Positions 215 through 12,967 of a DNA stretch of 15,974 bases are shown one piece after another. Source of the stretch: DATDCY01 sp031406795 [NCBI: Candidatus Rokuibacteriota bacterium]. GTDB lineage: Bacteria; JAUVQV01. A program made the position numbers and the translations under genes. The notes beneath the pieces were generated by a model, which made no database searches, was not told the DNA's origin, and was given only the letters and a program-made list of their open reading frames with translations. Positions within the stretch are counted from its first letter, which is position 1. Every line of letters starts with the position of its first letter. The DNA is taken from contig JANOHV010000212.1 in the NCBI GenBank assembly GCA_031406795.1, positions 1 to 15,974 of the forward strand, read 5' to 3'.

Positions 215-1457
215 TCAGGGGCTGCCCCTGGTTCTTGTCAGCCAGGGGGCGGACCAGAGGGGTGAGACAAGATCGGCGTAGAACTCGCGAGCGATGGCGA
301 TCAGCGTCAGGCGTTTGCGGATTTCGGGTTTGAGGTTGCGCAGATAGAAGCTCTGGATCAGGACGAAAGCGATAAAGAGCGTCAGGACGAAGTTCTGGAT
401 GGCAACAGGATGGTGTTTGAAGCAGTGATTGAGCGCCCAGTGGGTGGCCAGGGTGTTGAAGAGATCGTTTTCGATGTCCCAGCGACGGTGGCCTACGGTG
501 CAGAGCTGCGGTGCCGGCAGAACGGCGGATGGGATCGTCGTCTGCCACCACCAACTGTGCTCTTCGGCCTGGACCTCCCAGCGGCCCGCGATGCGGTGAC
601 GTTTGTTCTCGCTCTCCTGGGTGTGCAACACCCGCAGGGGAACCCGGATTCCCGCAGCGGATTCGAAGCCTTCTTCATCCCAGTACGCAATGGTCTTCTT
701 CCCATCTTGATAGAGCTTCGGCCTCTGGTGCTGGAACAATCCTTGCGCATCGAGCAGGAGATTTCGCTTGTCGCCCTTGAGAACGGTGACCACATGTTTG
801 CCCAGCTCGAGGCACAGGTTGATAAAGGGCGCCTGAAAGTAGAGGGCATCGGCCACAAAGGCGTCGAAGAATCGGGGATAGTTCTCACAGACGCGCCGCA
901 CGAGTCGGCCGGCCGCCCCCACCTCATCCTCCCCAGGCTGGATCATCTCCAAGTCCAGGGGCGCTGCCAGGTCAAAGCCGATGAGATGGCAGACCACTGC
1001 CCGGTGGTAGTACTCCGTTACCTCACGGGCGTTAACCGTGATCGTGCGCTGGTTGCACGCCGGACAGCAACGGTGCCTGCTGGGAAAAAAATTCATGGCC
1101 GTCTATGGCCGCAAAGCGCAGGGTCCAGCGTTTGACAAAGACCTTGTTGCGTCCGAGACGGTGATTGATCTTGCACAGCATGGTGCGCAGGATCTGCGGG
1201 TCGATCTGCGCTGCGACCCTGCCGATGGTGTCGGCGCTCGGTTTGATCGGTCCGACCAATCTCTCCAGTCGCCGCGATGGCCGCAGTGCCGACTCGATGG
1301 CATTGAGACTGCCGCATCGAAGCACCGACATGGCAAAGGCGCTTCCCCAGATGGCCGTTGCCGGAATCTGCGGCTTGCGCCGCGAATCCCGCACCGTAGC
1401 CAGCAGCGCTCCGAAATCGAAGAGCTTCTCCAAATAGCGGCTAAACCGGGCGAGCAT
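215..1457 (-). pseudogene. IS4-type DDE transposase, split into two frames at a T7 run
   Basis: It catalyses transposition of the surrounding element. The first frame begins at the ATG at 1457, preceded by GGAGGT at a 10-base spacing, and overlaps the end of the upstream small ORF by 17 bases. It carries the first catalytic Asp (D119, in AAIDGHEFF) and then runs out of frame. The second frame (ending at 215) continues the protein with a cysteine cluster (CCPACNQR), the second Asp (VADALYF, about D203) and the R-x3-E segment RRWDIEN (about E329). Reading through with one T fewer in the run at 1085-1091 gives an intact protein of about 413 residues with all three acidic residues. Neither frame alone has the full triad. 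It is either a one-base inactivating frameshift or a programmed slip. I label it pseudogene because intactness cannot be shown. Confidence 0.8.
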
Positions 1458-1827
1458 CGGGAGCCGACCTCCGGCGGCGCACTGGGGAAGGCGCCTGCTT
1501 TGCCGCCTTCTCCTTGAGAAACCGCTCCAGATACTCCTGGAGCATCTTCTCCCACAGGGCGGCGGCCTCCCGATAGTCTCCCGCCCAGGTGCGCACCTCC
1601 TCCTCCAGGGCCGGCGGCACGTATACCATCTTGCGGCTGCGGCCAACCTTGATGGAGAGGTACAAGGAAACGTGCTTCAACCCCTTGGCGCACTTGCAGC
1701 TCTTCTTCCCGCAGGTCCGAGCCATCGTGACCAAGCCGGCCCGCATCATGGGACGGCTCTGCAGCAGGCTGGTCAGACGAGAGCGTGCTCTACTTCCGGC
1801 GGCGGACAAATAGGCAGAGTGGGTCAT
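1441..1827 (-). CDS. DUF6788-like small protein of the insertion sequence
   Basis: This 128-residue protein is basic at its start and then carries a paired-cysteine knuckle (CGKKSCKCAKG), a short beta-like stretch (VSLYLSIKVGRSRKMVYVP) and a charged helical C-terminus (about residues 72-110). The pattern of Cys-rich knuckle, then GR-x-R-x-x-YVP, then helix is that of the DUF6788 family, which is often found directly upstream of transposase genes. Its role is unknown; nucleic-acid binding is a guess from the cysteine knuckle and charge. The start is supported by GAGGAGG a few bases upstream. The next gene's start codon lies inside its end, so translation is probably coupled. Confidence 0.7.
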   Translation of the reverse strand: MTHSAYLSAAGSRARSRLTSLLQSRPMMRAGLVTMARTCGKKSCKCAKGLKHVSLYLSIKVGRSRKMVYVPPALEEEVRTWAGDYREAAALWEKMLQEYLERFLKEKAAKQAPSPVRRRRSAPDARPV

Positions 1828-1921: not shown

Positions 1922-2105
1922 GGGGGGCGGGTTAACCCCTTGGATTGCCTACAGACCTACCTCGGCAAATTTCTAGTTGCGGAACCGCTGGGCAGCACGC
2001 CGGCCGTCGCGACGTTTCGGGGCGCCGCCGCTTGATCGGGAGGGTGCACTCCGGTATGTTCGAAGACGATGCGGGGCTGCCGCAGCCCGCGGACGAGGAG
2101 GAAAC

Positions 2106-3455
2106 TTGCGACAGGAACGTTGGCTGCCGATGATTGCCCTCACGGCGCTGCTCGCGGCGACCCCGGGCGCGGCGGCCGCGGGCGAGATCCCGCTGACGCT
2201 GGAGGAGGCGATCGGCATCGCGCTGCGCAATCACCCCGCGCTCGCGGCCGCCGCGGGGCGCGAGAACGGGGCCTGGGCGGCGCACGACCGGGCGGCCGCC
2301 GAGCGCTGGCCGCAGCTGCGGCTGGAGTCGCGACTCGCTCACCTGAGCGAGGTTCCCGCGACCGAGATACCCGGCCGCGAACCGGTGCCTCTGGCGGAGC
2401 GCGACACCTGGGTCACCTCCGCCTCCCTGCAGCAACTCGTGTATTCCGGCGGCAGGGTCAGCGCCGCGGTCCGCCAGTCGGGGCGCGGCGCACAGGCCGC
2501 CGGCGATGCGCGGCTGAGGACGCGGCAGTTGGTCGCCCACGGGGCCGAGCGCGCGTTCCGCGTGCTGCTGGCCACCCAGGAGGAGATCGGCGTCGCCGCG
2601 TTGAACCTGGCCGCGGCCGAGAACCATCTGCGCGTCGCCGGGGAGCGGTATGCGGCGCGCGCGGCGGCACGGTTCGACGTGTTGCGCGCCGAAGTGCAGG
2701 CCGAGGAGGCGCGCCAGGAGGTGATTCGCGCCGACGGCAACCTCATGGCGGCCCGCGCCCTGCTCCTGCAGGCCCTGGGGCTGCCGAGCGGCGAACACCG
2801 GGCCCTGCCCCCGGAGCCGGCGGCGCTGCCACAGCCGGGGGTCGACGAACTCCTCGCCGCGGCCGAGCGGGACCGCCCCGACCTTCGTGGCCTGGCGCGC
2901 CAACTCGCCGCCGCCGATGCCGGGGTGGCCGCCGCGCGCGCCGAGCGCTACCCGACGCTCGCGCTGGCCGCGGACTACCAGCTGGTCACACCCGAGTCCA
3001 CGACGGTCTTCACGCGCTGGTCGCTCGGCGCTCTCGTGAGTCTGCCGCTGCTCGACGGCGGCCGCGCCGGCGCGCGGCGGCGTGAAGCCGTGGCCGCCGT
3101 GGTGCAGGCGGGCGCCGCGTTCGCGCAGGGGCGTCGCCAGGTGGAGGCGGAGGTACGGCAGGTCGTCGCCCGGGTCGCCACCGCGGCGGCCCAGGTGCGC
3201 GTCGCGCAGCGGCAGGTCGAACAGGCCGAGGAACTCGCGCGGCTCGCCGACGTGCGCTTTTCGGGGGGGGTCGGCACGGCCACCGAGGTTGCCGACGCCA
3301 AAGGGAGTCTCGCCCGCGCGCGCTACGGCCTGGTGCGCGCCCGGGCCGAGCGCGGGATCGCCGACGCCGAACAGGCGCTCGCGGTCGGGTCGGTGCCGAC
3401 CGAGGCGCCCGCGGAGCGAACGCAGCCGGCGACAGCAGGGGGGACGAAGCAATGA
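2106..3455 (+). CDS. TolC-like outer-membrane efflux protein
   Basis: It forms the outer-membrane channel of the exporter encoded downstream. From the chosen start it has 449 residues, the usual length of TolC-family proteins. It begins with a signal peptide (basic RQER, hydrophobic IALTALLAATPGAAAA). The mature part begins with LTLEEAIGIALRNHPAL, the classic start of an outer-membrane efflux (OEP) repeat. A second repeat lies after about residue 235, with long alanine-rich helices and the SLPLLDGGR segment typical of the family. I chose the TTG at 2106 because GAGGAGG lies just upstream and it supplies the basic n-region; the ATG at 2130 would give a signal peptide without positive charge. 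The stop overlaps the next start (ATGA). Confidence 0.88.
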   Translation: MRQERWLPMIALTALLAATPGAAAAGEIPLTLEEAIGIALRNHPALAAAAGRENGAWAAHDRAAAERWPQLRLESRLAHLSEVPATEIPGREPVPLAERDTWVTSASLQQLVYSGGRVSAAVRQSGRGAQAAGDARLRTRQLVAHGAERAFRVLLATQEEIGVAALNLAAAENHLRVAGERYAARAAARFDVLRAEVQAEEARQEVIRADGNLMAARALLLQALGLPSGEHRALPPEPAALPQPGVDELLAAAERDRPDLRGLARQLAAADAGVAAARAERYPTLALAADYQLVTPESTTVFTRWSLGALVSLPLLDGGRAGARRREAVAAVVQAGAAFAQGRRQVEAEVRQVVARVATAAAQVRVAQRQVEQAEELARLADVRFSGGVGTATEVADAKGSLARARYGLVRARAERGIADAEQALAVGSVPTEAPAERTQPATAGGTKQ

Positions 3456-4651
3456 GGAAGCCGAATCCGAGGCTCGTGGTTCCCATGCTGCTGGTGCTCG
3501 CGGTCGGCGCAGCGGGCCTCTGGTACGCGGCGGGCCGGCGCAACCATGTGGCGCCGGGGACACTCTCCGGCAACGGGACGATCGAGGCGACCGAAGTCGA
3601 GGTCGGCGCCAGGATCTCCGGCCGGTTGCTGACGGTCGTGCCCCGCGAGGGCGACGCGGTACGCCGCGGGCAGGAGCTGGCGACGCTCGAGGCCGCCGAA
3701 CTCGAGGCGCAGGCGGCCCAGATCCGCGGCAATCTGGCGGCCGCCGAGGCGGCGTTCGCCGATGTCGGCGCCGGGACGCGCGTCGAGGAGATCCGCCGTC
3801 TCAAGGCCCAGGTGCAGGCCGCGCGCGATGCGCAGGCGCAGGCGCAGGCGCGCATGGACCTGCTGCGCGCCGGCACCCGCCCCGAACTGCTGGCGCAGGT
3901 GCAAGCGGGGGTGCAGCAGGCCCAGATCGCCCTCGATGACGCGCAGCGGGACTTCGAGCGCACCGGCCGGCTCGCAGGCGAGGGTGCGGTCGCCGGGCGC
4001 GATCTCGACGTGGCGACGGCCCGCCGCGACGCCGCGGCCGCGGGGCTCGACGCCGCCGGGAACCGGCTTGCCGAAGCGCAGGCCGGCGCGCGGCCGGAGG
4101 AACTCCGCGGCGCCGCGGCCGCCGGCGCCCAGGCCGCTTCCCAGCTGCAGGCGGCGCAGGCGACGCTCGATCTCGCGGTTGCCGGTCCGCGCCGCGAAAC
4201 GCTTCGGGCCGCCGAAGCGCGCGTGGAGGCCGCGCGGGGGGCCGTCGCGGTCGCCGAGGCGCTGCTGGCGCAGACGCGGATCGCGGCCCCTTCCGATGGC
4301 CGGGTGACGCTGCGAAACGCGGAGCCGGGCGAGGTGGTCACCCCGGGCTTTCCGATCGTTCGCATCGCCGATCTCGCGCGGGTGCGGGTGCGGGTGTACC
4401 TCCCGGGACCCCAGATCGGCCGGGTGCGGACCGGCCAGCGCGCGGCGGTCAGCGTCGACGCGTTTCCCGGCCGCATCTTCGCCGGCGTCGTTACGCAGAT
4501 CGCCGAGAAGCCCGAGTACACGCCGAAGAACGTCCAGACGCGCGAGGAGCGCGCGAAGCTCGTCTACGGCGTCAAGATCGAAGTCGAGAACCCTGGCGGG
4601 GAACTCAAACCGGGCATGCCTGCCGACGCCGTGATCACGCTCGGCGACTGA
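3452..4651 (+). CDS. HlyD/YbhG-like periplasmic adaptor (membrane fusion protein)
   Basis: This 399-residue adaptor would link the inner-membrane ABC transporter to the TolC-like channel. One N-terminal membrane segment (about 9-27) anchors it. The first half of a lipoyl-like domain is at about 50-82 (GARISGRLL...GDAVRRGQ) and the second half at about 276-305 (RIAAPSDGRV...GEVVTPGFP). Between them is a long alanine/glutamine-rich coiled-coil hairpin. A beta-barrel-like domain follows and the protein ends KPGMPADAVI. The hairpin has four copies of an AG-x-R-x-E element, at 107, 140, 211 and 244, two on each arm at 33-residue spacing. The start overlaps the previous stop. Closest in layout to E. 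coli YbhG; the substrate is unknown. Confidence 0.9.
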   Translation: MRKPNPRLVVPMLLVLAVGAAGLWYAAGRRNHVAPGTLSGNGTIEATEVEVGARISGRLLTVVPREGDAVRRGQELATLEAAELEAQAAQIRGNLAAAEAAFADVGAGTRVEEIRRLKAQVQAARDAQAQAQARMDLLRAGTRPELLAQVQAGVQQAQIALDDAQRDFERTGRLAGEGAVAGRDLDVATARRDAAAAGLDAAGNRLAEAQAGARPEELRGAAAAGAQAASQLQAAQATLDLAVAGPRRETLRAAEARVEAARGAVAVAEALLAQTRIAAPSDGRVTLRNAEPGEVVTPGFPIVRIADLARVRVRVYLPGPQIGRVRTGQRAAVSVDAFPGRIFAGVVTQIAEKPEYTPKNVQTREERAKLVYGVKIEVENPGGELKPGMPADAVITLGD

Positions 4652-4742
4652 GGCGCTACTCTGAGGAATCATCGCGAAACCAAGCGAGGAATTGCAGGTG
4701 TTCATCCCGAATCGAAAAAAGGGAAACCGTGCAAAAGCCTCT

Positions 4743-4772
4743 CTAGTCTCGCGGGTGAAGCGCCCGCACTAG
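4743..4772 (+). promoter_or_regulatory. Hairpin just upstream of the ATPase gene
   Basis: CTAGT (4743-4747) pairs with ACTAG (4768-4772), and GCGGG (4751-4755) with CCCGC (4763-4767), with a three-base bulge on one side and a 7-base loop. It lies in the only sizeable gap of the operon (4652-4792), 20 bases before the ATPase start. There is no T-run after it, so it is not a classical terminator. It could adjust mRNA stability or translation. Confidence 0.3.
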
Positions 4773-4792
4773 CGCCGCTGATGGAGCAGCCG

Positions 4793-6787
4793 ATGATCCT
4801 CGCCCGGGGGCTGCGCAAGTCCTTCGGCGCCACGGCCGCCGTCGACGGCCTCGATCTCGCGGTCGGCCGCGGCGAGATCTTCGGCCTGGTCGGGCCGGAC
4901 GGTGCCGGCAAGACGACGGCAATCAGGCTGCTCTGCGGCATTCTCGACGCCGACGCCGGGGAGGCCGCGGTCGCCGGTTTCGATCTGCGACGCGAGCCCG
5001 AGGCGGTCAAGCTGCGGATCGGCTACATGTCGCAGCGTTTCTCGCTCTACGGCGATCTCACCGTGGCGGAGAACCTGCGCTTCTTCGCGCGCCTCTTTCA
5101 GGTGCCGCGCGAGGAGCGTCGGCGCAAGCAGGACGAACTGCTGGAGTTCGCGCGGCTCGGGCCGTATCGCGACCGCCTCGCGCAGAACCTCTCCGGGGGC
5201 ATGAAACAGAAACTCGCGCTCGCCTGCACGCTGATCCACACCCCGGAGGTCCTGTTCCTCGATGAACCGACGACCGGAGTCGACCCGGTGTCGCGCCGCG
5301 ATTTCTGGAAGATCCTGTACGACCTCCTCCGCGCGGGGGTGACCGTCCTGGTGAGCACGCCGTACATGGACGAAGCCGAACGCTGCGGGCGCGTCGCGTT
5401 GATGGACCGCGGCCGCATCCATCTCTGCGACACCCCGGCCGCTCTCAAGGGGCGTATGCAGGGCCGCCTGCTCGAACTGGTGGCGACCCCGCAGCGGCTG
5501 GCCCGGGACGTCCTGGCCCGGATGCCCGGCGTCTGCGGTATCCAGGTCTTCGGCGACCGGCTGCACGTCTGGGTGCGCGAGGAGGGCCTCGACGAAGGCG
5601 CGGTCTGCGCGCACCTGGCGGGCCACGGCATCATCGCCTGCGAGTCGCGGCGCGTGGCGCCCGGTCTCGAGGACGTCTTCGTCTCGCTCCTCGCCGCCCC
5701 CCGGGACACCAACCAGGGTGACAGTAGTTCTCGCCCCCCCAAAAAGCCCCTGCTAGAGCCGGAGGGGTGGCGCGAAGCGGGGGGTGCGCAGCGACCACCC
5801 CGGCGGCGGGGTGGCAGGCAGGACCCCGCAGGCGACGCACGGTCTGCGGGGCCGGCCGTCGAAGTCGAGGGCCTCGTCAAGCGCTTCGGCGCCTTCACCG
5901 CCGTCGACGGCATCAGCTTCTCGGTGCCGCGCGGCGAGATCTTCGGCTTTCTCGGCCCCAACGGCGCCGGCAAGTCGACCACGATCAGGATGCTGTGCGG
6001 CATCCTGCTGCCGACCGCGGGGCGCGGTGCGGTGGCCGGCCTGGACATCGTGCGCCAGTCCGAGGGCATCAAGACCCGCATCGGCTACATGAGCCAGCGC
6101 TTCTCGCTCTACGACGATCTGACCGTCGCCGAAAATATCGAGTTCTTCGCCGGGATCTACGGGGTGGAGCCGCGGCGGCTGGCGGAGCGCCGGCGCTGGA
6201 TCCTCGCCATGGCGAATCTCGAGGGGCGCGCCGACAGCCCGGCCCGTGAGCTCTCCACCGGCTGGAAGCAGCGCCTGGCCCTGGGGTGCGCCGTGGTGCA
6301 CGAACCGCGGATCCTCTTCCTCGACGAGCCGACCTCCGGCGTCGACCCGCTCTCCCGGCGCGATTTCTGGGAGCTGATCCACACCGTGGCGGGGGAGGGC
6401 GTGACGGTTTTCGTCACCACGCACCTCATGGACGAGGCCGAGCACTGCGACCGGCTCGGGATGATCTACGGCGGGCGGCTCGTGGCGCTCGGCAGCCCGC
6501 GCGAGCTCAAGGAGGGCCTGAGCGAGGGGGTCCTGCTCGAAGTGCGCGCCGAGCCGCTGATGCTCGCGCTCGCCGCTGCCGCCCGGGCGCCCGGCGTGCG
6601 CGAGGTGGCGGTTTTCGGCTCGGGTTTGCACGTGATCGCCGTCGATGCCGCTGCCGCCGGCCCGCTGCGCGAAACGCTGGCTGCCGCCGGCGTCCGCGTG
6701 GACGGGATCGCGCCGATCCGCCCGACGCTCGAGGACGTCTTCGTTTCGCTCGTCGAGCGCGCCGATCGCGCCGCCGCGGGGGACTGA
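4793..6787 (+). CDS. YbhF-like ABC exporter ATPase with two fused nucleotide-binding domains
   Basis: It powers the ABC-2 exporter in the cytoplasm. The first domain has Walker A GPDGAGKT (34-41; Asp replaces the usual Asn, as in YbhF), signature LSGGMKQ and Walker B VLFLDEPT. The second, after about residue 352, has Walker A GPNGAGKS, an altered signature LSTGWKQ and Walker B ILFLDEPT. Both halves end in a LEDVFVSL motif common in ABC-2 ATPases. In the first half the H-loop His is Pro (VSTPYMDEAE), whereas the second keeps His (VTTHLMDEAE). A low-complexity linker of about 50 residues joins the domains. I chose the ATG at 4793 because GGAG lies 6 bases upstream; the ATG at 4781 has no SD. 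Length is 664 residues, longer than E. coli YbhF. Confidence 0.92.
   Translation: MILARGLRKSFGATAAVDGLDLAVGRGEIFGLVGPDGAGKTTAIRLLCGILDADAGEAAVAGFDLRREPEAVKLRIGYMSQRFSLYGDLTVAENLRFFARLFQVPREERRRKQDELLEFARLGPYRDRLAQNLSGGMKQKLALACTLIHTPEVLFLDEPTTGVDPVSRRDFWKILYDLLRAGVTVLVSTPYMDEAERCGRVALMDRGRIHLCDTPAALKGRMQGRLLELVATPQRLARDVLARMPGVCGIQVFGDRLHVWVREEGLDEGAVCAHLAGHGIIACESRRVAPGLEDVFVSLLAAPRDTNQGDSSSRPPKKPLLEPEGWREAGGAQRPPRRRGGRQDPAGDARSAGPAVEVEGLVKRFGAFTAVDGISFSVPRGEIFGFLGPNGAGKSTTIRMLCGILLPTAGRGAVAGLDIVRQSEGIKTRIGYMSQRFSLYDDLTVAENIEFFAGIYGVEPRRLAERRRWILAMANLEGRADSPARELSTGWKQRLALGCAVVHEPRILFLDEPTSGVDPLSRRDFWELIHTVAGEGVTVFVTTHLMDEAEHCDRLGMIYGGRLVALGSPRELKEGLSEGVLLEVRAEPLMLALAAAARAPGVREVAVFGSGLHVIAVDAAAAGPLRETLAAAGVRVDGIAPIRPTLEDVFVSLVERADRAAAGD
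5703..5850 (+). repeat. Repeat-like in-frame insert coding the inter-ATPase linker
   Basis: This part of the ATPase gene differs from its surroundings. It has a C7 run followed by A5, a G-rich tract, and a perfect 8-base inverted repeat (CCACCCCG at 5795-5802 and CGGGGTGG at 5807-5814, loop GCGG). It encodes a Pro/Arg/Gly-rich linker with no conserved look, between the LEDVFVSLL end of domain one and the VEVEGLVKRF start of domain two. I infer an intergenic palindromic element captured in frame; an ordinary disordered linker is the alternative. Confidence 0.4.
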
Positions 6788-6791
6788 AATC

Positions 6792-7925
6792 GTGTGGCAG
6801 CGGACGGGGATCATCGCCGGGAAGGAGTTCATCCAGATCGTGCGCGACTGGCGCACGCTCGCCGTCGTCATCGTCCTGCCCGTGCTGATGCTCGTTCTCT
6901 ACGGCTACGCCATCAACTTCGATCTGCGGCGCATCGCGCTCGGGGTGCAGGACGAGGACCGCAGCCCGGCCTCACGCCGGCTCGTCGACGCCTTCGAGCG
7001 CGGCGAGAATTTCGCGGTGGTCGCCGCGCTCGCATCCCCCGCCGCGGCCACGCGAGCGCTCGACGCCGGCGCGGTCCGCGCCGTGCTCGTGATCCCGCGC
7101 GGCCACGCCGCCGATCTCGCCGCCGGGCGGACCGCGATCATCCAGCTGCTGGTCGACGGCGCGGACTCCACGAGCGCGACGACCACCATCGGCTACGCCG
7201 GCGCCATCGTGCGCGAACACTCGGGGGCGACCACCATCGAAGCGCTGCGACGGCGGGGCCTGCTCGTGCGCGACGGGTTTCCGCCGCTCGAGATGCGGGC
7301 GCGCTTCTGGTACAACCCCGAACAGCGGAGCGTGAACTACATCGTCCCCGGCCTGATCGCCGTGATCCTGATGATGCTCTCCACGCTGCTCACCGCGCTC
7401 ACCGTGGTCCGCGAGCGCGAACGCGGCACGATCGAGCAGCTGGTGGTCTCGCCGCTCAAGCCCGCCGAGTTGGTCCTCGGCAAGCTGCTCCCGTACGCGC
7501 TGATCGCGTTCGTCGACGTCCTGCTCGTCATGGGGGCCGGGCGTCTGCTCTTCGGCGTGCGCGTCGCCGGGAGCATCCCGCTGCTGCTGGGCCTCTCGGC
7601 AATCTACCTCGTCTCCGCGCTCGGCATCGGCCTGCTGATCTCGGTGCTCTCGCCCACCCAGCAGACCGCGATGACCGTCGGTCTGCTCGCCTCGCAGCTG
7701 CCGACCATGCTGCTCTCGGGTTTTCTCTTCCCCATCAGCGCGATGCCCGAGCCCGTCCAGTGGCTGACGAACCTGATCCCCGCCCGCCACTACCTGGTGA
7801 TCGTGCGCGGGATCTTCCTCAAAGCCAACGGGCTGGCCCAGCTCTGGCCGCAGGCGCTGCTGCTCGCCGGAATCGCGGCGCTGACGCTCGGCCTGGCCGC
7901 CCGCAAGTTCAGGAAGAAGCTGTGA
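6792..7925 (+). CDS. ABC-2 type exporter permease, YbhS-like
   Basis: One of two inner-membrane permease subunits working with the upstream double ATPase. At 377 residues it has one N-terminal membrane segment (about 20-40, VVIVLPVLMLVLYGYA) and a large periplasmic domain to about residue 170. It has the family motif WYNPEQRSVNYIVPGL, then five C-terminal membrane segments including TIEQLVVSPLKPAEL and FLFPISAMPEPVQW. I chose the GTG at 6792, four bases after the ATPase stop, because the conserved protein begins there (WQRTGIIAGKEF). It matches the length and layout of E. coli YbhS. The next gene's start overlaps its stop (GTGA). Confidence 0.9.
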   Translation: MWQRTGIIAGKEFIQIVRDWRTLAVVIVLPVLMLVLYGYAINFDLRRIALGVQDEDRSPASRRLVDAFERGENFAVVAALASPAAATRALDAGAVRAVLVIPRGHAADLAAGRTAIIQLLVDGADSTSATTTIGYAGAIVREHSGATTIEALRRRGLLVRDGFPPLEMRARFWYNPEQRSVNYIVPGLIAVILMMLSTLLTALTVVRERERGTIEQLVVSPLKPAELVLGKLLPYALIAFVDVLLVMGAGRLLFGVRVAGSIPLLLGLSAIYLVSALGIGLLISVLSPTQQTAMTVGLLASQLPTMLLSGFLFPISAMPEPVQWLTNLIPARHYLVIVRGIFLKANGLAQLWPQALLLAGIAALTLGLAARKFRKKL

Positions 7926-9055
7926 ACGCGCGCCGCGTCCTCCATCTGGTGCGCAAGGAGCTGCTCCAGCTGCGGCGCGACCCGCAGATGCTGCGCATCG
8001 TTTTCATCGCGCCGCTCTTCCAGCTCTTCATCTTCGGGTACGCGGTGACGACCGACGTCAAACACGTGGCCACCGCCCTGCTCGATCAGGACCGCAGCGT
8101 CCAGAGCCGCGAGCTGGCCGAACGCTTCGCGCGCTCCGGCTACTTCGACATCGTGCGCCGGCCGGAGGGTCCGGCCGCCGTTGATGCACTGCTCGACGAC
8201 GGCGCCGTCCAGGCCGCGCTCGTCATCCCCCGGGGCTTCGCCGCCGATCTGGCCTCCGAGCGCACCGCGCGCGTGCAGCTGCTGATCGACGGCAGCGATT
8301 CGATGACCGCGGGAATCGTTGCCGGCTACGCCGGCGGGGTCGCCGGGGAGTATTCGGCGGGCATCGCGGCCGAGAGGCTGGAGCGGCTGCGCGCCCGTGT
8401 CCAGCGCGTCCCCGCCGTCGAGGAGCGGACGCGGGTCTGGTACAACCCCGAACTCAAGAGCGTGCGCTACATGGTGCCCGGGGTGCTCTCGATGATCCTC
8501 TTTCTCGTGACGATGCTGCTGACGTCGATGGCCATCGTCAAGGAGCGCGAGATCGGCACCCTTGAGCAGCTGGTGGTGACCCCGATCACGGCGGCGGAGC
8601 TGATCGTCGGCAAGGCGCTCCCCTACATCGGGATCGGGTTCATCGACATGCTGCTGGTGCTCGCGCTCTCGACCTTCTGGTTCCGCGTCCCGATCGCCGG
8701 CTCCGTGGCGCTGCTCTTCGCGCTGGCGACCGTGTTCATCTTCACCAGTCTCGGCCTCGGGCTGTTCATCTCCACGATCTCGCAGACCCAGCAGCAGGCG
8801 ATGATGTCGACGTTCTTCTTCATGCTCCCCTCGATCCTGCTCTCCGGGTTCATGTTCCCGATCGCGAACATGCCGCGGGTCATCCAGTACGTGACGCTGC
8901 TGATCCCGCTGCGCTATTTCCTCGTGATCGTCCGTGGCATCTTTCTCAAGGGCAACGGCATCGACGTTCTCTGGCCGCAGGTGGCGGTGCTGCTGGGGTT
9001 CGGGGCGGCCATCCTCGGCCTCGCCGCCCTGCGCTTCCGCAAGCACCTCGGTTAG
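7922..9055 (+). CDS. ABC-2 type exporter permease, YbhR-like
   Basis: The second permease subunit, also 377 residues and clearly a paralogue of the first. It has RRDPQMLRIVFIAPLFQLFIFGYA as N-terminal membrane segment, a periplasmic domain, WYNPELKSVRYMVPGV and five further membrane segments with TLEQLVVTPITAAEL and FMFPIANMPRVIQY. Such permeases pair as heterodimers over a YbhF-like ATPase. The GTG start at 7922 overlaps the preceding TGA by the GTGA arrangement, so the two are probably made in equal amounts by translational coupling. It is the last gene of the exporter operon; a long palindromic element starts at its stop codon. Confidence 0.9.
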   Translation: MNARRVLHLVRKELLQLRRDPQMLRIVFIAPLFQLFIFGYAVTTDVKHVATALLDQDRSVQSRELAERFARSGYFDIVRRPEGPAAVDALLDDGAVQAALVIPRGFAADLASERTARVQLLIDGSDSMTAGIVAGYAGGVAGEYSAGIAAERLERLRARVQRVPAVEERTRVWYNPELKSVRYMVPGVLSMILFLVTMLLTSMAIVKEREIGTLEQLVVTPITAAELIVGKALPYIGIGFIDMLLVLALSTFWFRVPIAGSVALLFALATVFIFTSLGLGLFISTISQTQQQAMMSTFFFMLPSILLSGFMFPIANMPRVIQYVTLLIPLRYFLVIVRGIFLKGNGIDVLWPQVAVLLGFGAAILGLAALRFRKHLG

Positions 9056-10343: not shown

Positions 10344-11174
10344 ATGGCACGCAAGGGCAACGTTTTCCTGATGGCGGGGGTTCTCGCACTGGCGTTGTGC
10401 GCCGCGGGCGCGGTTCCGGGCCAGGCGAAGGTCGCGCTCAAGGGCGAGGACTGCGCGAAGTGTCACGAACAGCAACCGGCGGACATCGAGGCGGGCGGCG
10501 GCAAGCACAAGTCCGAGATCAGCTGCCAGGACTGCCACGCCGGCCACCGTCCGGTCTCCAAGAACAACATCCCCAAGTGCAGCGACTGCCACGAGGGCGA
10601 AGAGCACTTCAAGCTGCCCAACTGCCTCGGCTGCCACAAGAACCCGCACACCCCGAAGAACATCTCGTTCGACAAGAAGCAGACCGCGCCCTGTCTGACC
10701 TGCCACAAGGAGCAGATCAAGCAACTCACGGAGTTTCCGAGCAAGCACACGCAGCAGGCCTGCTCGTTCTGTCACGACGTCCACGGCAAGAAGCCCGCCT
10801 GCACCCAGTGCCACAAGCCGCACGCCCCGACGATGACGGCGTCGGAGTGCTCGACCTGCCACCGCGCCCACCAGCCGAAGAACGTCGTGTACCCGGCGAC
10901 CGTAGCGAACGCCCAGTGCGGCGCCTGCCACAAGAAGCCGGCCACGCTGATCGCGGCGACGTCGACCCGCCACGCGAAGGTCGCCTGCGTGCAGTGCCAC
11001 AAGGACAAACACAAGATGGTCCCGAACTGCAACCAGTGCCACCAGGTCAAGCATCCGGCCGGCATCCTGCAGAAGTTCCCCAATTGCCTGACGTGCCACA
11101 ACCACCCGCATGACTTGAACAACTTCGCGGCGGCCAAGCCCGCGGCGGCGCCGGCGGCTCCGGCGACGAGGTAA
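10344..11174 (+). CDS. Dodecahaem periplasmic c-type cytochrome
   Basis: This 276-residue electron-transfer protein has a signal peptide (about residues 1-28, ending GQA). Twelve CxxCH haem-attachment motifs start at C37, C61, C79, C94, C117, C140, C153, C169, C192, C215, C229 and C248, about one haem per 20 residues. Many motifs come in doublets, with nearby His residues available as distal ligands, so bis-His coordination is likely. The tail (about 261-276) is Ala/Pro-rich. Haem would be attached in the periplasm; the protein probably acts as an electron wire or capacitor, as multihaem cytochromes do in metal-reducing bacteria. GGAGG lies 9 bases before the start. It is a single gene, closed by a strong terminator. 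Confidence 0.93.
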   Translation: MARKGNVFLMAGVLALALCAAGAVPGQAKVALKGEDCAKCHEQQPADIEAGGGKHKSEISCQDCHAGHRPVSKNNIPKCSDCHEGEEHFKLPNCLGCHKNPHTPKNISFDKKQTAPCLTCHKEQIKQLTEFPSKHTQQACSFCHDVHGKKPACTQCHKPHAPTMTASECSTCHRAHQPKNVVYPATVANAQCGACHKKPATLIAATSTRHAKVACVQCHKDKHKMVPNCNQCHQVKHPAGILQKFPNCLTCHNHPHDLNNFAAAKPAAAPAAPATR

Positions 11175-11220: not shown

Positions 11221-11254
11221 GGCCCGCCGGGGAGTCTCCCGGCGGGCCTTTTTT
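11221..11254 (+). terminator. Intrinsic terminator of the dodecahaem cytochrome gene
   Basis: A perfect 11-base stem, GGCCCGCCGGG (11221-11231) and CCCGGCGGGCC (11238-11248), loop of six, followed by TTTTTT (11249-11254). It lies 47 bases after the cytochrome stop and ends at the stop of the converging gene. On the minus strand there is no T-run, so it should act mainly on plus-strand transcripts. Confidence 0.93.
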
Positions 11255-11850
11255 CATCGGTGTGAGACGAAGGCGGAGCGCTTCGCCAGCGGTCCCAGTT
11301 CGGCGTCGGCCTGGAAGAATTCCTCGTCGATCCGGGCGAGGATCTCCCTGGCCCGGACCGGGTCGGCGGCCGTGTCGACCGCGTCGAACTCCGCCCAGAG
11401 CCGGTCGGCCCGGTTCAGGACCCGGCCGAGCGGTCGCAGACGGTCGGCGAGCGCGGATTGCAGTTCCCGAAGCGACTCCGCCAGGAGCCCGATCTGGTCG
11501 CCGCTGCGCAGGCGCATCGGAAAATTCACCGCGCCGCGCCGCAGGCTCTCGGCGAATCTCTCCATCTTGAAGAGCGGGCCGGCGATACTGTGCGAGATGA
11601 AGATGGTGACCAGCGCGACGATGACGCTGCCGATGATCAGGTAGATCAGCACGGACAGACCGATCATGGGGAGCAGTACTTTCTGCAGGTTGTGCAGGGT
11701 TGTGTAGGCCTGCTTGTAACTGGGCCCGAGATCCTGGTCGAGCGCCCGCCGCAGCGTGTAGAGAAACGACGCGCTGGCCACGGCGATCGCGGCGGCGACG
11801 ATGATCATCCAGCGGAGCTGATAGCGTATCCAGATTTCCCGTTCCGACAT
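11254..11850 (-). CDS. Two-helix HAMP-type membrane protein
   Basis: This 198-residue inner-membrane protein has two membrane segments (about 14-32 and 59-86) with a short periplasmic loop between them. A HAMP-like region follows (about 87-135, SHSIAGPLFKMERFAESL...), then a helical, acidic C-terminus (about 135-198). It has no kinase, methyl-accepting or cyclase output domain. Similar stand-alone HAMP proteins with an S-H-x-IAGPL motif occur beside cytochrome genes in Geobacter relatives; their job is not established. It is the last gene of the tetrahaem module, 11 bases after the cytochrome, with a weak GGGGG upstream as SD. It may anchor or sense the redox state of the cytochrome, which is inference. 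Confidence 0.75.
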   Translation of the reverse strand: MSEREIWIRYQLRWMIIVAAAIAVASASFLYTLRRALDQDLGPSYKQAYTTLHNLQKVLLPMIGLSVLIYLIIGSVIVALVTIFISHSIAGPLFKMERFAESLRRGAVNFPMRLRSGDQIGLLAESLRELQSALADRLRPLGRVLNRADRLWAEFDAVDTAADPVRAREILARIDEEFFQADAELGPLAKRSAFVSHR

Positions 11851-11861
11851 GATTGCCCCCG

Positions 11862-12365
11862 CTAATAGTCCTGGTGACAGGCCACGCAGAGTGGCTCAAA
11901 ACCCTTGATCGGATCCGACATCCTCAGGTAGATGGTCTTGTACCAGGCGGTCTGCGTCCGGCCCTCCTGCTGGAGGTACGTGACCGGCTGGTCCTGGTAG
12001 GCCCGCGTCCTGGAGAGAAACGCCATGTGGGGGTTGTGGCAGGAGCCGCAGGAAACCTTCCCGTCCTCGAGCGGAAGCTCCGCGGGCACGTCGATGGTGG
12101 TGGGTGAACGACTGGGGTCGACCCCGACCGGGTGCGAGAGGCCGAGCTTCGTCTGGGTGTGGCACTTCATGCAGATCTCCAGAATTTCCACGACGAAGCT
12201 GTGCGGGTCCATCGTTCCGCCGAAGTAGGCGTGACAGCCGACGCAGGCCTCCGCCCCGCTGAAGATCTGGTGCGGGTTCGTCGGCGGCGCGACATCCGCG
12301 GGGGCCCGGGTCAGCGCAAGAGCGAGAAGCAGGAGGACGAGCACCCCGCTCCGGAGCGCCCTCAT
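11862..12365 (-). CDS. Tetrahaem periplasmic c-type cytochrome
   Basis: A 167-residue protein with an N-terminal signal peptide (RSGVLVLLLLALALTRAPA, to about residue 25). Four CxxCH motifs start at C41, C65, C106 and C160. The stretch LPLEDGKVSCGSCHNPH is typical of doubled-CxxCH and cytochrome c3-like electron carriers; further His residues (for example H55, H78, H113) could be axial ligands. The protein should act in the periplasm or be held at the membrane by partners. Its ATG overlaps the TGA of the upstream membrane-protein gene, so translation is probably coupled. The HAMP-type membrane protein follows after 11 bases. Confidence 0.9.
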   Translation of the reverse strand: MRALRSGVLVLLLLALALTRAPADVAPPTNPHQIFSGAEACVGCHAYFGGTMDPHSFVVEILEICMKCHTQTKLGLSHPVGVDPSRSPTTIDVPAELPLEDGKVSCGSCHNPHMAFLSRTRAYQDQPVTYLQQEGRTQTAWYKTIYLRMSDPIKGFEPLCVACHQDY

Positions 12366-12967
12366 GGCTCATCGACCTTGAAGCCCTTGTAGAGACTTTT
12401 CACGTTTCCGAACCCGGCGTGCAGTTCCCGGTTCCTCGCGGCCGTCACGCCGCCGCCGCCGCGCTCGAGTTCCTCGCGTGTTTCGCGGATCCTCTCCCGA
12501 AGCGTGAGGATGCCGCGGCGCAGCTCGTCGACCCGTTCCTGGTGCCCGGCGAGGCCGTCGGCGAGCTTGTCCTGCAGCGTGCCGAATTCGTGCGGCCGGG
12601 GCGGGCGGGGCCACGCCGAAGGATCCTGCCCCGACAGCGCGGAGCGCACGTTGGCCCGGACGGCGCGGGAGGCGCGGGCCACCGCCCAGGAGATCAGAAA
12701 GACGGCGAGGATCGCCAGGGCCATGATGCCGATGGTCGCCGCGATGTTGGTGTCGACGACCGCGGTGCGCAGCAGATCCCAGGAGCTGCAGTCCTGGGCA
12801 TGCCCGCGGAAGAGGCAATAGCGCAGGGTGGCTACGGCACGCTGGTAGATCAGGTAGGAGAGCGCCGCCCCTCCGGCGACGAGAATGAGCAGTTAGTAGC
12901 AGAGGATGCGCGTCTGGAACCACTTCTTGACGAAGAAATCCCGCCGTTGACCGAGCTTCAAGACCAT
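12362..12967 (-). pseudogene. HAMP-like membrane protein gene interrupted by an in-frame TAA
   Basis: From the ATG at 12967, preceded by GAGGAGG, a continuous frame of 202 codons runs to the stop overlapping the tetrahaem cytochrome start. Codon 25 is TAA (12895-12893). Coding character resumes directly after it. The first membrane segment spans the stop (RILCY, stop, LLILVAGGAALSYLIY); a periplasmic stretch and a second membrane segment (IMALAILAVFLISWAVA) follow, then a charged coiled-coil tail (LRERIRETREELE). The layout and first membrane segment resemble the HAMP-type protein two genes downstream, so it is probably a paralogue. The longest ATG-initiated intact part, from 12724, begins inside the second membrane segment and is unlikely to be functional. 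A sequencing error or restart after the stop remains possible. Confidence 0.7.

What the first reader, a model, noticed from the sequence alone, without database searches (positions are those of the whole stretch)
11254..12967. Membrane protein, tetrahaem cytochrome, membrane protein module
Two related two-helix HAMP-like proteins flank a small tetrahaem cytochrome with an overlapping start and an 11-base gap, and neither has an output domain. This could be an undescribed unit in which the HAMP proteins dock, sense or signal the redox state of the cytochrome, or link it to the quinone pool. It is the best candidate here for a new system.
Basis: inference. Interest (0 to 1): 0.65.

Follow-up and report, generated by a model that had tools for sequence, protein, structure and literature searches.

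The report
Paired membrane hairpins flanking a cytochrome
Two small membrane proteins built like the stem of a bacterial receptor, but with no signalling end, are encoded around a four-haem electron carrier, and related sets recur in many other bacterial genomes, so it is probably one machine, perhaps a redox sensor, that we could not find described (this copy has one gene broken by a stop codon).

Summary
The set is not a local accident. By profile, A and B are homologous two-helix HAMP-type proteins. In 14 loci with a close tetrahaem relative, A lies beside the cytochrome in all and B in 13 (the 14th meets a contig end); seven keep the order A-cytochrome-B. A heptahaem version, B-cytochrome-A, recurs in a Geobacteraceae-centred and a Nitrospirae-centred phylum. 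I did not find it in print.

Lead: a histidine (H56) at the tip of A's hairpin is present in 57 of 63 A-type proteins next to a cytochrome and 6 of 28 without one; Q18 and nearly always R8 stay in both. Sixteen tetrahaem sequences share four haem motifs but only three other histidines. I propose that the hairpins dock the cytochrome, H56 contacts or ligates a haem, and haem state is passed to the HAMP side. The conserved set is well supported; complex, haem contact and signalling are inferred. Main rival: an electron-transfer anchor. Relatedness, and a definition changed after a weak first test, limit the H56 statistics.

The parts
12362..12967 (-). gene A: two-helix HAMP-type membrane protein, interrupted by an in-frame stop
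   Evidence: family alignments; R8, Q18, H56 invariant in 17 rows
12893..12895 (-). in-frame TAA, codon 25 of gene A
12800..12802 (-). codon of H56, tip of the inferred periplasmic hairpin of A
11862..12365 (-). tetrahaem c-type cytochrome, 167 aa, secreted by its N-terminus
12231..12245 (-). haem motif 1 CVGCH
12159..12173 (-). haem motif 2 CMKCH
12036..12050 (-). haem motif 3 CGSCH
11874..11888 (-). haem motif 4 CVACH
11254..11850 (-). gene B: two-helix HAMP-type membrane protein, 198 aa, no output domain
11449..11601 (-). HAMP-like segment of B (residues 84-134)
   Evidence: PF00672 18.8 bits, below the cut-off of 25; H87, A90, G91, P92 invariant in 12 rows

Best explanation
A, the cytochrome and B make one complex at the inner membrane. 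A and B are homologous helical hairpins: N-terminus in the cytoplasm, two membrane helices joined by a short periplasmic hairpin, then a HAMP-type coiled coil in the cytoplasm and nothing beyond. They form a helix bundle on which the secreted cytochrome sits. The histidine at the tip of A's hairpin (H56) touches a haem, most simply as an axial ligand supplied in trans or one that exchanges with redox state. The redox state of the cytochrome would then move the hairpin and so the HAMP bundle, which passes it to a separate cytoplasmic partner (kinase, regulator or scaffold). Shown by sequence: homology of A and B, recurring gene set, association of H56 with cytochrome neighbours, no output domain in the window's A and B. 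Inferred: physical complex, topology, haem contact, signalling. In this window A is truncated as read, so the local unit may be inactive, or the stop may be a sequence error.
For: A-B homology by profiles. Gene set: 14 loci with a close tetrahaem relative, 13 with A and B (7 A-cyt-B, 6 cyt-A-B), one cyt-A at a contig end. 51 loci hold an A and a B gene within 2.8 kb on one strand; 48 of them have a >=3-CxxCH ORF within 900 bases. Stand-alone A/B-type genes near such an ORF: 69 of 99 in the first phylum (42 of 70 without the profile-building loci) and 59 of 82 in the second, against 2 of 20 HAMP domains in large ORFs; both genes of a pair are counted. H56: 34 of 37 with a cytochrome, 4 of 14 without (first phylum); 23 of 26 and 2 of 14 (second). 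Hairpin of 31 residues in 60 of the 63 cytochrome-linked A genes. 16 of 16 tetrahaem sequences: four haem motifs, three other His columns shared by all. The A profile matches TM2+HAMP of the sensory rhodopsin transducer HtrII (2f95, E 3e-7). L138: cytochrome, A, then a HAMP histidine kinase-receiver protein. Receiver-LuxR genes beside A-11-haem genes in 5 of the 10 such loci whose neighbours I listed, 4 confirmed by Pfam. A trans axial His has a precedent in OmcS (PMC6584659, passages).
Against: No structure or complex model. Cytochrome neighbour and H56 are both clustered on the tree; the independent-pairs test has only 5 pairs and shows nothing. With my first definition of A (Q18) the second-phylum table was weak (26 of 37 against 9 of 21, P 0.053); the better figures came after I redefined A by score and realigned. 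Restricted to usual hairpins, the first phylum alone is not significant (34 of 37 against 4 of 6, P 0.14). Six cytochrome-linked A proteins have K, R, V or A at 56. The window's clade has a fourth candidate His (H54) inside the cytochrome and heptahaem partners have six invariant His plus a seventh in 33 of 36, so no haem there need lack a ligand. Members were picked as stand-alone genes, so the lack of output domains among relatives is partly selection. Only one kinase neighbour was noticed; neighbours were not scanned systematically.
Confidence: 0.4

Rival explanations
1. Same complex, but its job is electron transfer: the A/B hairpins anchor the cytochrome and help form a quinol or quinone site at the outer face of the inner membrane, as NrfH/CymA-type anchors do; the HAMP part is only structural.
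For: No output domain in A or B; other versions lie beside NHL-repeat (L114) or PPIase and 26-haem genes (L140) that look like electron-conduit clusters; 2 of 11 rows of the cytochrome alignment match the NrfH model at E<=1e-4; in part of the family one haem may lack an internal His, as a quinol-reactive haem can (recalled).
Against: The invariant residues in A are few and there is one His, no pair for a haem b; B keeps the HAMP linker motif; the NrfH match of the window's cytochrome is far below cut-off (17.6 against 134.2 bits).
Confidence: 0.32
2. Membrane tether or assembly scaffold without sensing: hairpins hold a periplasmic partner (cytochrome, PPIase-like lipoprotein, others) near the membrane.
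For: Relatives without cytochromes sit beside SurA-like lipoprotein, polysaccharide or pilin genes (by eye; SurA-like match in L129 sub-threshold) and keep R8/Q18 but mostly not H56, so the stem may be a general platform.
Against: Does not explain why H56 goes with haem partners, nor the HAMP motif.
Confidence: 0.2
3. In this genome the unit is decaying: A is a pseudogene and cytochrome and B are left over. (About this copy; compatible with the other readings.)
For: In-frame TAA in helix 1 of A; A has the longest end branch of its 15-row clade (2.14).
Against: Rest of A open, GC3 normal, cytochrome and B open; a one-base sequence error gives the same picture.
Confidence: 0.35

Closest known systems
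HtrII, transducer of sensory rhodopsin II (PDB 2f95)
   Same: Two membrane helices plus HAMP, signal taken from a separate cofactor-carrying partner (recalled); best solved-structure match of the A profile
   Different: Partner is a membrane rhodopsin and HtrII carries a chemotaxis output domain (recalled); here the partner is a secreted cytochrome and there is no output
Haem-c chemotaxis receptors of Geobacter, GSU0582 and GSU0935 (PMC3460858, start of abstract in the listing)
   Same: Membrane receptors with haem c on the periplasmic side
   Different: They bind one haem in their own PAS-type domain and are chemotaxis proteins; A and B have no haem motif and no output, and stand beside a multihaem protein
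Af1503 of Archaeoglobus fulgidus
   Same: A HAMP protein without output domain (recalled); its HAMP matches the A profile weakly (E 0.076)
   Different: No cytochrome partner known to me
NapC/NrfH/CymA membrane-anchored tetrahaem quinol dehydrogenases
   Same: Small tetrahaem cytochrome held at the outer face of the inner membrane (recalled)
   Different: Anchor is a helix of the cytochrome itself (recalled); here two separate HAMP-type proteins; NrfH model far below cut-off
Uet porin-cytochrome pathway (PMC10734462, passages)
   Same: Undecahaem cytochrome, NHL-repeat and PPIase genes, kinds of genes also seen around the heptahaem and pentahaem versions
   Different: The passages read name no HAMP-type pair; the window has no such genes beside it
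OetABI conduit of Desulfobacterota (PMC10553843, passages)
   Same: Porin with multihaem cytochromes, in the phylum where relatives of this set occur
   Different: 'hamp', 'nhl' and 'peptidyl' count 0 in the text; no membrane pair described in the passages read

Membership tests
HAMP domain (PF00672) | score above the curated cut-off | tested here: not met
   B 18.8 bits against 25; A no match; at E<=0.01, 1 of 12 B rows and 4 of 17 A rows match
HAMP domain (PF00672) | follows the last membrane helix, with linker proline and downstream acidic residue (features recalled) | tested here: met
   B: H87, A90, G91, P92, G106, R115, D118 invariant in 12 rows; the A profile aligns to TM2+HAMP of solved receptors
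Chemoreceptor or sensor kinase | cytoplasmic output domain | tested here: not met
   the window's A and B end after the coiled coil; no output match
Doubled-CXXCH multihaem cytochrome (PF09699/TIGR01905) | score above cut-off | tested here: met
   32.7 bits against 20.6; 31.8 against 25.2
NrfH/NapC quinol dehydrogenase | score above cut-off (TIGR03153) | tested here: not met
   17.6 bits against 134.2
NrfH/NapC quinol dehydrogenase | quinol oxidation | not testable with these tools
   needs biochemistry
Haem-c chemoreceptor (GSU0582/GSU0935 type) | haem-c motif in the receptor's own periplasmic domain | tested here: not met
   A and B contain no CxxCH; their periplasmic part is a short hairpin

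The most novel reading that the evidence does not exclude
A widespread class of output-less HAMP pairs reads a multihaem cytochrome by giving it an axial haem ligand from the tip of a membrane hairpin: haem oxidation or ligand exchange pulls on the hairpin and switches the HAMP bundle, a redox switch made of separate proteins.
Probability: 0.2. Interest if true: 0.85.

Novelty: new variant of a known kind. Interest (0 to 1): 0.6.

Why it matters
Metal-respiring bacteria carry dozens of multihaem cytochromes, and how cells sense the redox state of that periplasmic pool is, to my knowledge, largely open. A recurring HAMP pair with a single partner-linked histidine gives a concrete, one-residue test. 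It would also explain many small genes next to cytochromes in electron-transfer clusters.

Tried and rejected
Tried without result: two genome-collection scans (none of 226 pattern matches confirmed as a relative of the cytochrome; permease query, 80 loci used only as doors to genomes); plasmids; single-sequence folding of the cytochrome (mean pLDDT 39), so no fold search was run. B folded alone gave 68.5 with helices 3-39, 45-89, 117-157, 164-195, consistent with the topology and no more. No host could be named: in the genomes behind 40 of the 80 loci, the best-scoring matches of the CCA-transferase-like protein are 35-38% identical and spread over several phyla.

Negative results for the cytochrome profile: Acidobacteria-centred phylum 2 of 149 genomes, both partial (E<=1e-12); NC10-centred 0 of 95 (E<=1e-12); Armatimonadetes-centred 0 of 121 (E<=1e-10); the last two had no positive control. 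Positive: Nitrospirae-centred 33 of 148 (E<=1e-10).

Rejected: chance adjacency (recurring gene set); an alternative genetic code (a single TAA; not tested further); the claim that every cytochrome of the family lacks one haem ligand (fails for the window's clade and most heptahaem partners).

Rows dropped or mislabelled: the L104 B protein was lost from the profile by a trimming slip (11 B rows used) and restored in alignment A3; L112's A gene is fused in frame to the next gene and was left out of the profiles; only ORFs passing the stand-alone filter (tail under 90 residues) were counted; the L107/L095 cytochrome (two canonical CxxCH) is not among the 16 sequences. The automatic label 'no cytochrome' is wrong or unsure for L107, L123 and L197 (contig ends) and L142, and also L154 (cytochrome genes beyond 900 bases); they were left as labelled. 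Only CxxCH was counted, so longer haem motifs are missed.

For that I lowered the leading reading from 0.42 to 0.40. In my notes I called the NtrC-like gene at L138 divergent; it is convergent.

Literature: 10 searches of open-licence PMC full text. Passages were read in PMC10734462, PMC10599522, PMC10553843, PMC12977616 and PMC6584659; all others were seen only in listings with the start of the abstract. None of what I saw described this gene set. Subscription papers were not searchable.

Full report
Observation. The window's minus strand encodes A (12967-12362), a 167-residue tetrahaem cytochrome (12365-11862) and B (11850-11254), with a 4-base overlap and an 11-base gap. A convergent 12-haem gene lies beyond B (10344-11174) and a CCA-transferase-like gene on the same strand upstream of A. 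No genome is held for the window.

Families. The cytochrome passes the doubled-CXXCH models. B has a sub-threshold HAMP match; A has none. A and B show no meaningful BLASTP similarity, but profiles of 17 A and 11 B proteins align over 175 columns (probability 99.3). The A profile finds HtrII, chemoreceptors and NarQ among solved structures through TM2 and HAMP; the B profile finds only two chemoreceptor chains at E 0.006-0.012.

Conservation of the set. The window's cytochrome matched 35 of 198 genomes of a Geobacteraceae-centred phylum at E<=1e-5; I followed the better matches, not all. Larger regions and gene listings show 14 loci with a close tetrahaem relative: seven A-cytochrome-B (L099, L106, L107, L115-L118), six cytochrome-A-B (L100 first copy, L101-L105) and one cytochrome-A that meets the contig end (L100 second copy). 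The L107 cytochrome (same gene as in L095) has two canonical CxxCH, one CX4CH and a last motif YxxCH. In the class around G061, which has the best match, 9 of 12 genomes have a cytochrome match, 6 of them with the tetrahaem type.

Wider family. I fetched regions for stand-alone hits picked from those tables, not for every hit, plus 20 HAMP hits in large ORFs as control. Stand-alone A/B-type ORFs with a >=3-CxxCH ORF within 900 bases on the same strand: 69 of 99 and 59 of 82; control 2 of 20, L174 and L175. Both genes of a pair are counted, so these are not independent. Of 51 loci with an A and a B gene within 2.8 kb, 48 had such an ORF; the exceptions are L107 (degenerate motifs), L218 and L219. 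A comes first in the 12 tetrahaem-only pairs and in L107; B comes first in the 36 pairs with a heptahaem partner and in L218 and L219. Other partners are 11-haem cytochromes followed by TlpA-like genes, and 5-haem cytochromes, some near PPIase and 26-haem genes.

The histidine. R8, Q18 and H56 were the invariant residues of the first 17 A proteins. H56 lies mid-hairpin, in the part expected outside the membrane. With A-type defined as scoring higher with the A than the B profile, His stands at 56 in 34 of 37 cytochrome-linked and 4 of 14 other A genes in the first phylum, and 23 of 26 and 2 of 14 in the second. Exceptions with a cytochrome: K (L137), R (L141, L156), V (L222, L226), A (L229). 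His without a cytochrome by the automatic label: L107, L123, L125, L142, L197, L218; of these only L125 and L218 have no cytochrome or contig end to explain them. Limits: the first definition (Q18) gave 42 of 45 against 5 of 28 in the first phylum but only 26 of 37 against 9 of 21 in the second (P 0.053), where B genes carrying Q and members with another hairpin were mixed in. The redefinition and realignment were made after seeing this. Among usual hairpins the tables are 34 of 37 against 4 of 6 (P 0.14) and 23 of 26 against 2 of 10 (P 0.0002). On the tree both traits are clade-wise, and the independent-pairs test has no power. The link is a lead, not proof.

The cytochromes. All 16 tetrahaem sequences (the window, 13 of the 14 loci above, and two 4-haem genes from heptahaem clusters, L137 and L141) have four haem motifs and exactly three other columns with His in all (H32, H78, H113). 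A fourth (H54) is present in the window, L099, L106 and L115-L118 but not in the L100-L105 type; the L095/L107 relative has it too. All 36 heptahaem partners have seven motifs and six invariant His, with a seventh in 33. So one haem may be free for a ligand in trans in part of the family only. OmcS shows that a neighbouring molecule can supply an axial His (PMC6584659, passages).

Function. For signalling: HAMP ancestry; in L138 a cytochrome (apparently split into a 2-motif and a 3-motif ORF), A and a HAMP histidine kinase-receiver protein stand in a row, with an NtrC-like regulator (named by eye) convergent; receiver-LuxR genes stand on the other strand beside A-11-haem genes in L108, L109, L119, L120 and L121, 5 of the 10 such loci whose neighbours I listed (not in L110, L122, L124, L136, L147; Pfam for L108, L109, L120 and L121). 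For electron transfer: the same proteins occur among conduit-like gene clusters. For a general stem: relatives without cytochromes sit by SurA-like lipoprotein, polysaccharide or pilin genes, mostly judged by eye. I rank redox sensing first (0.40), quinol or electron-transfer anchor second (0.32), plain tether third (0.2). The decay reading (0.35) is about this copy and can be true alongside any of them.

Verdict.

Noticed in passing
window 215-1827 (minus): ORFs in different frames that read like pieces of a broken transposase (by eye, not scanned).
   Followed up: no
window 1977-9055 (plus): Export cassette by eye: outer-membrane-factor-like, HlyD-like, a double ABC ATPase and two ABC-2 permeases; closest permease match 64% in an Armatimonadetes MAG.
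   Followed up: partly
window 10344-11174 (plus): Secreted protein with 12 CxxCH motifs, convergent with the finding.
   Followed up: partly
L100, L101, L103: cytochrome-A-B sets stand next to a multi-helix transporter gene; the one in L101 matches amino-acid permeases.
   Followed up: partly
L099, L106, L115, L117: A divergent gene beside A-cytochrome-B: HEAT repeats in L099 and L117 by Pfam, similar by eye in L106 and L115; FUR-family genes downstream in L106 and L117.
   Followed up: partly
L108-L110, L119-L122, L136, L147: A plus an 11-haem cytochrome plus TlpA-like thioredoxin genes recurs as its own set (Pfam for L110).
   Followed up: partly
L095:623-1390 (same gene as in L107): Tetrahaem relative with a CX4CH motif and a last motif YxxCH lacking the first cysteine.
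   Followed up: no
L128, L129, L139, L149, L153: A/B-type relatives with R or D in place of H56 beside a SurA-like lipoprotein gene (by eye; sub-threshold Pfam match for L129 only) and a second secreted protein.
   Followed up: partly
L174, L175: Chemotaxis-type receptor genes with one CxxCH of their own next to, or overlapping, a 4-CxxCH ORF; these are the two positives of the control set.
   Followed up: no
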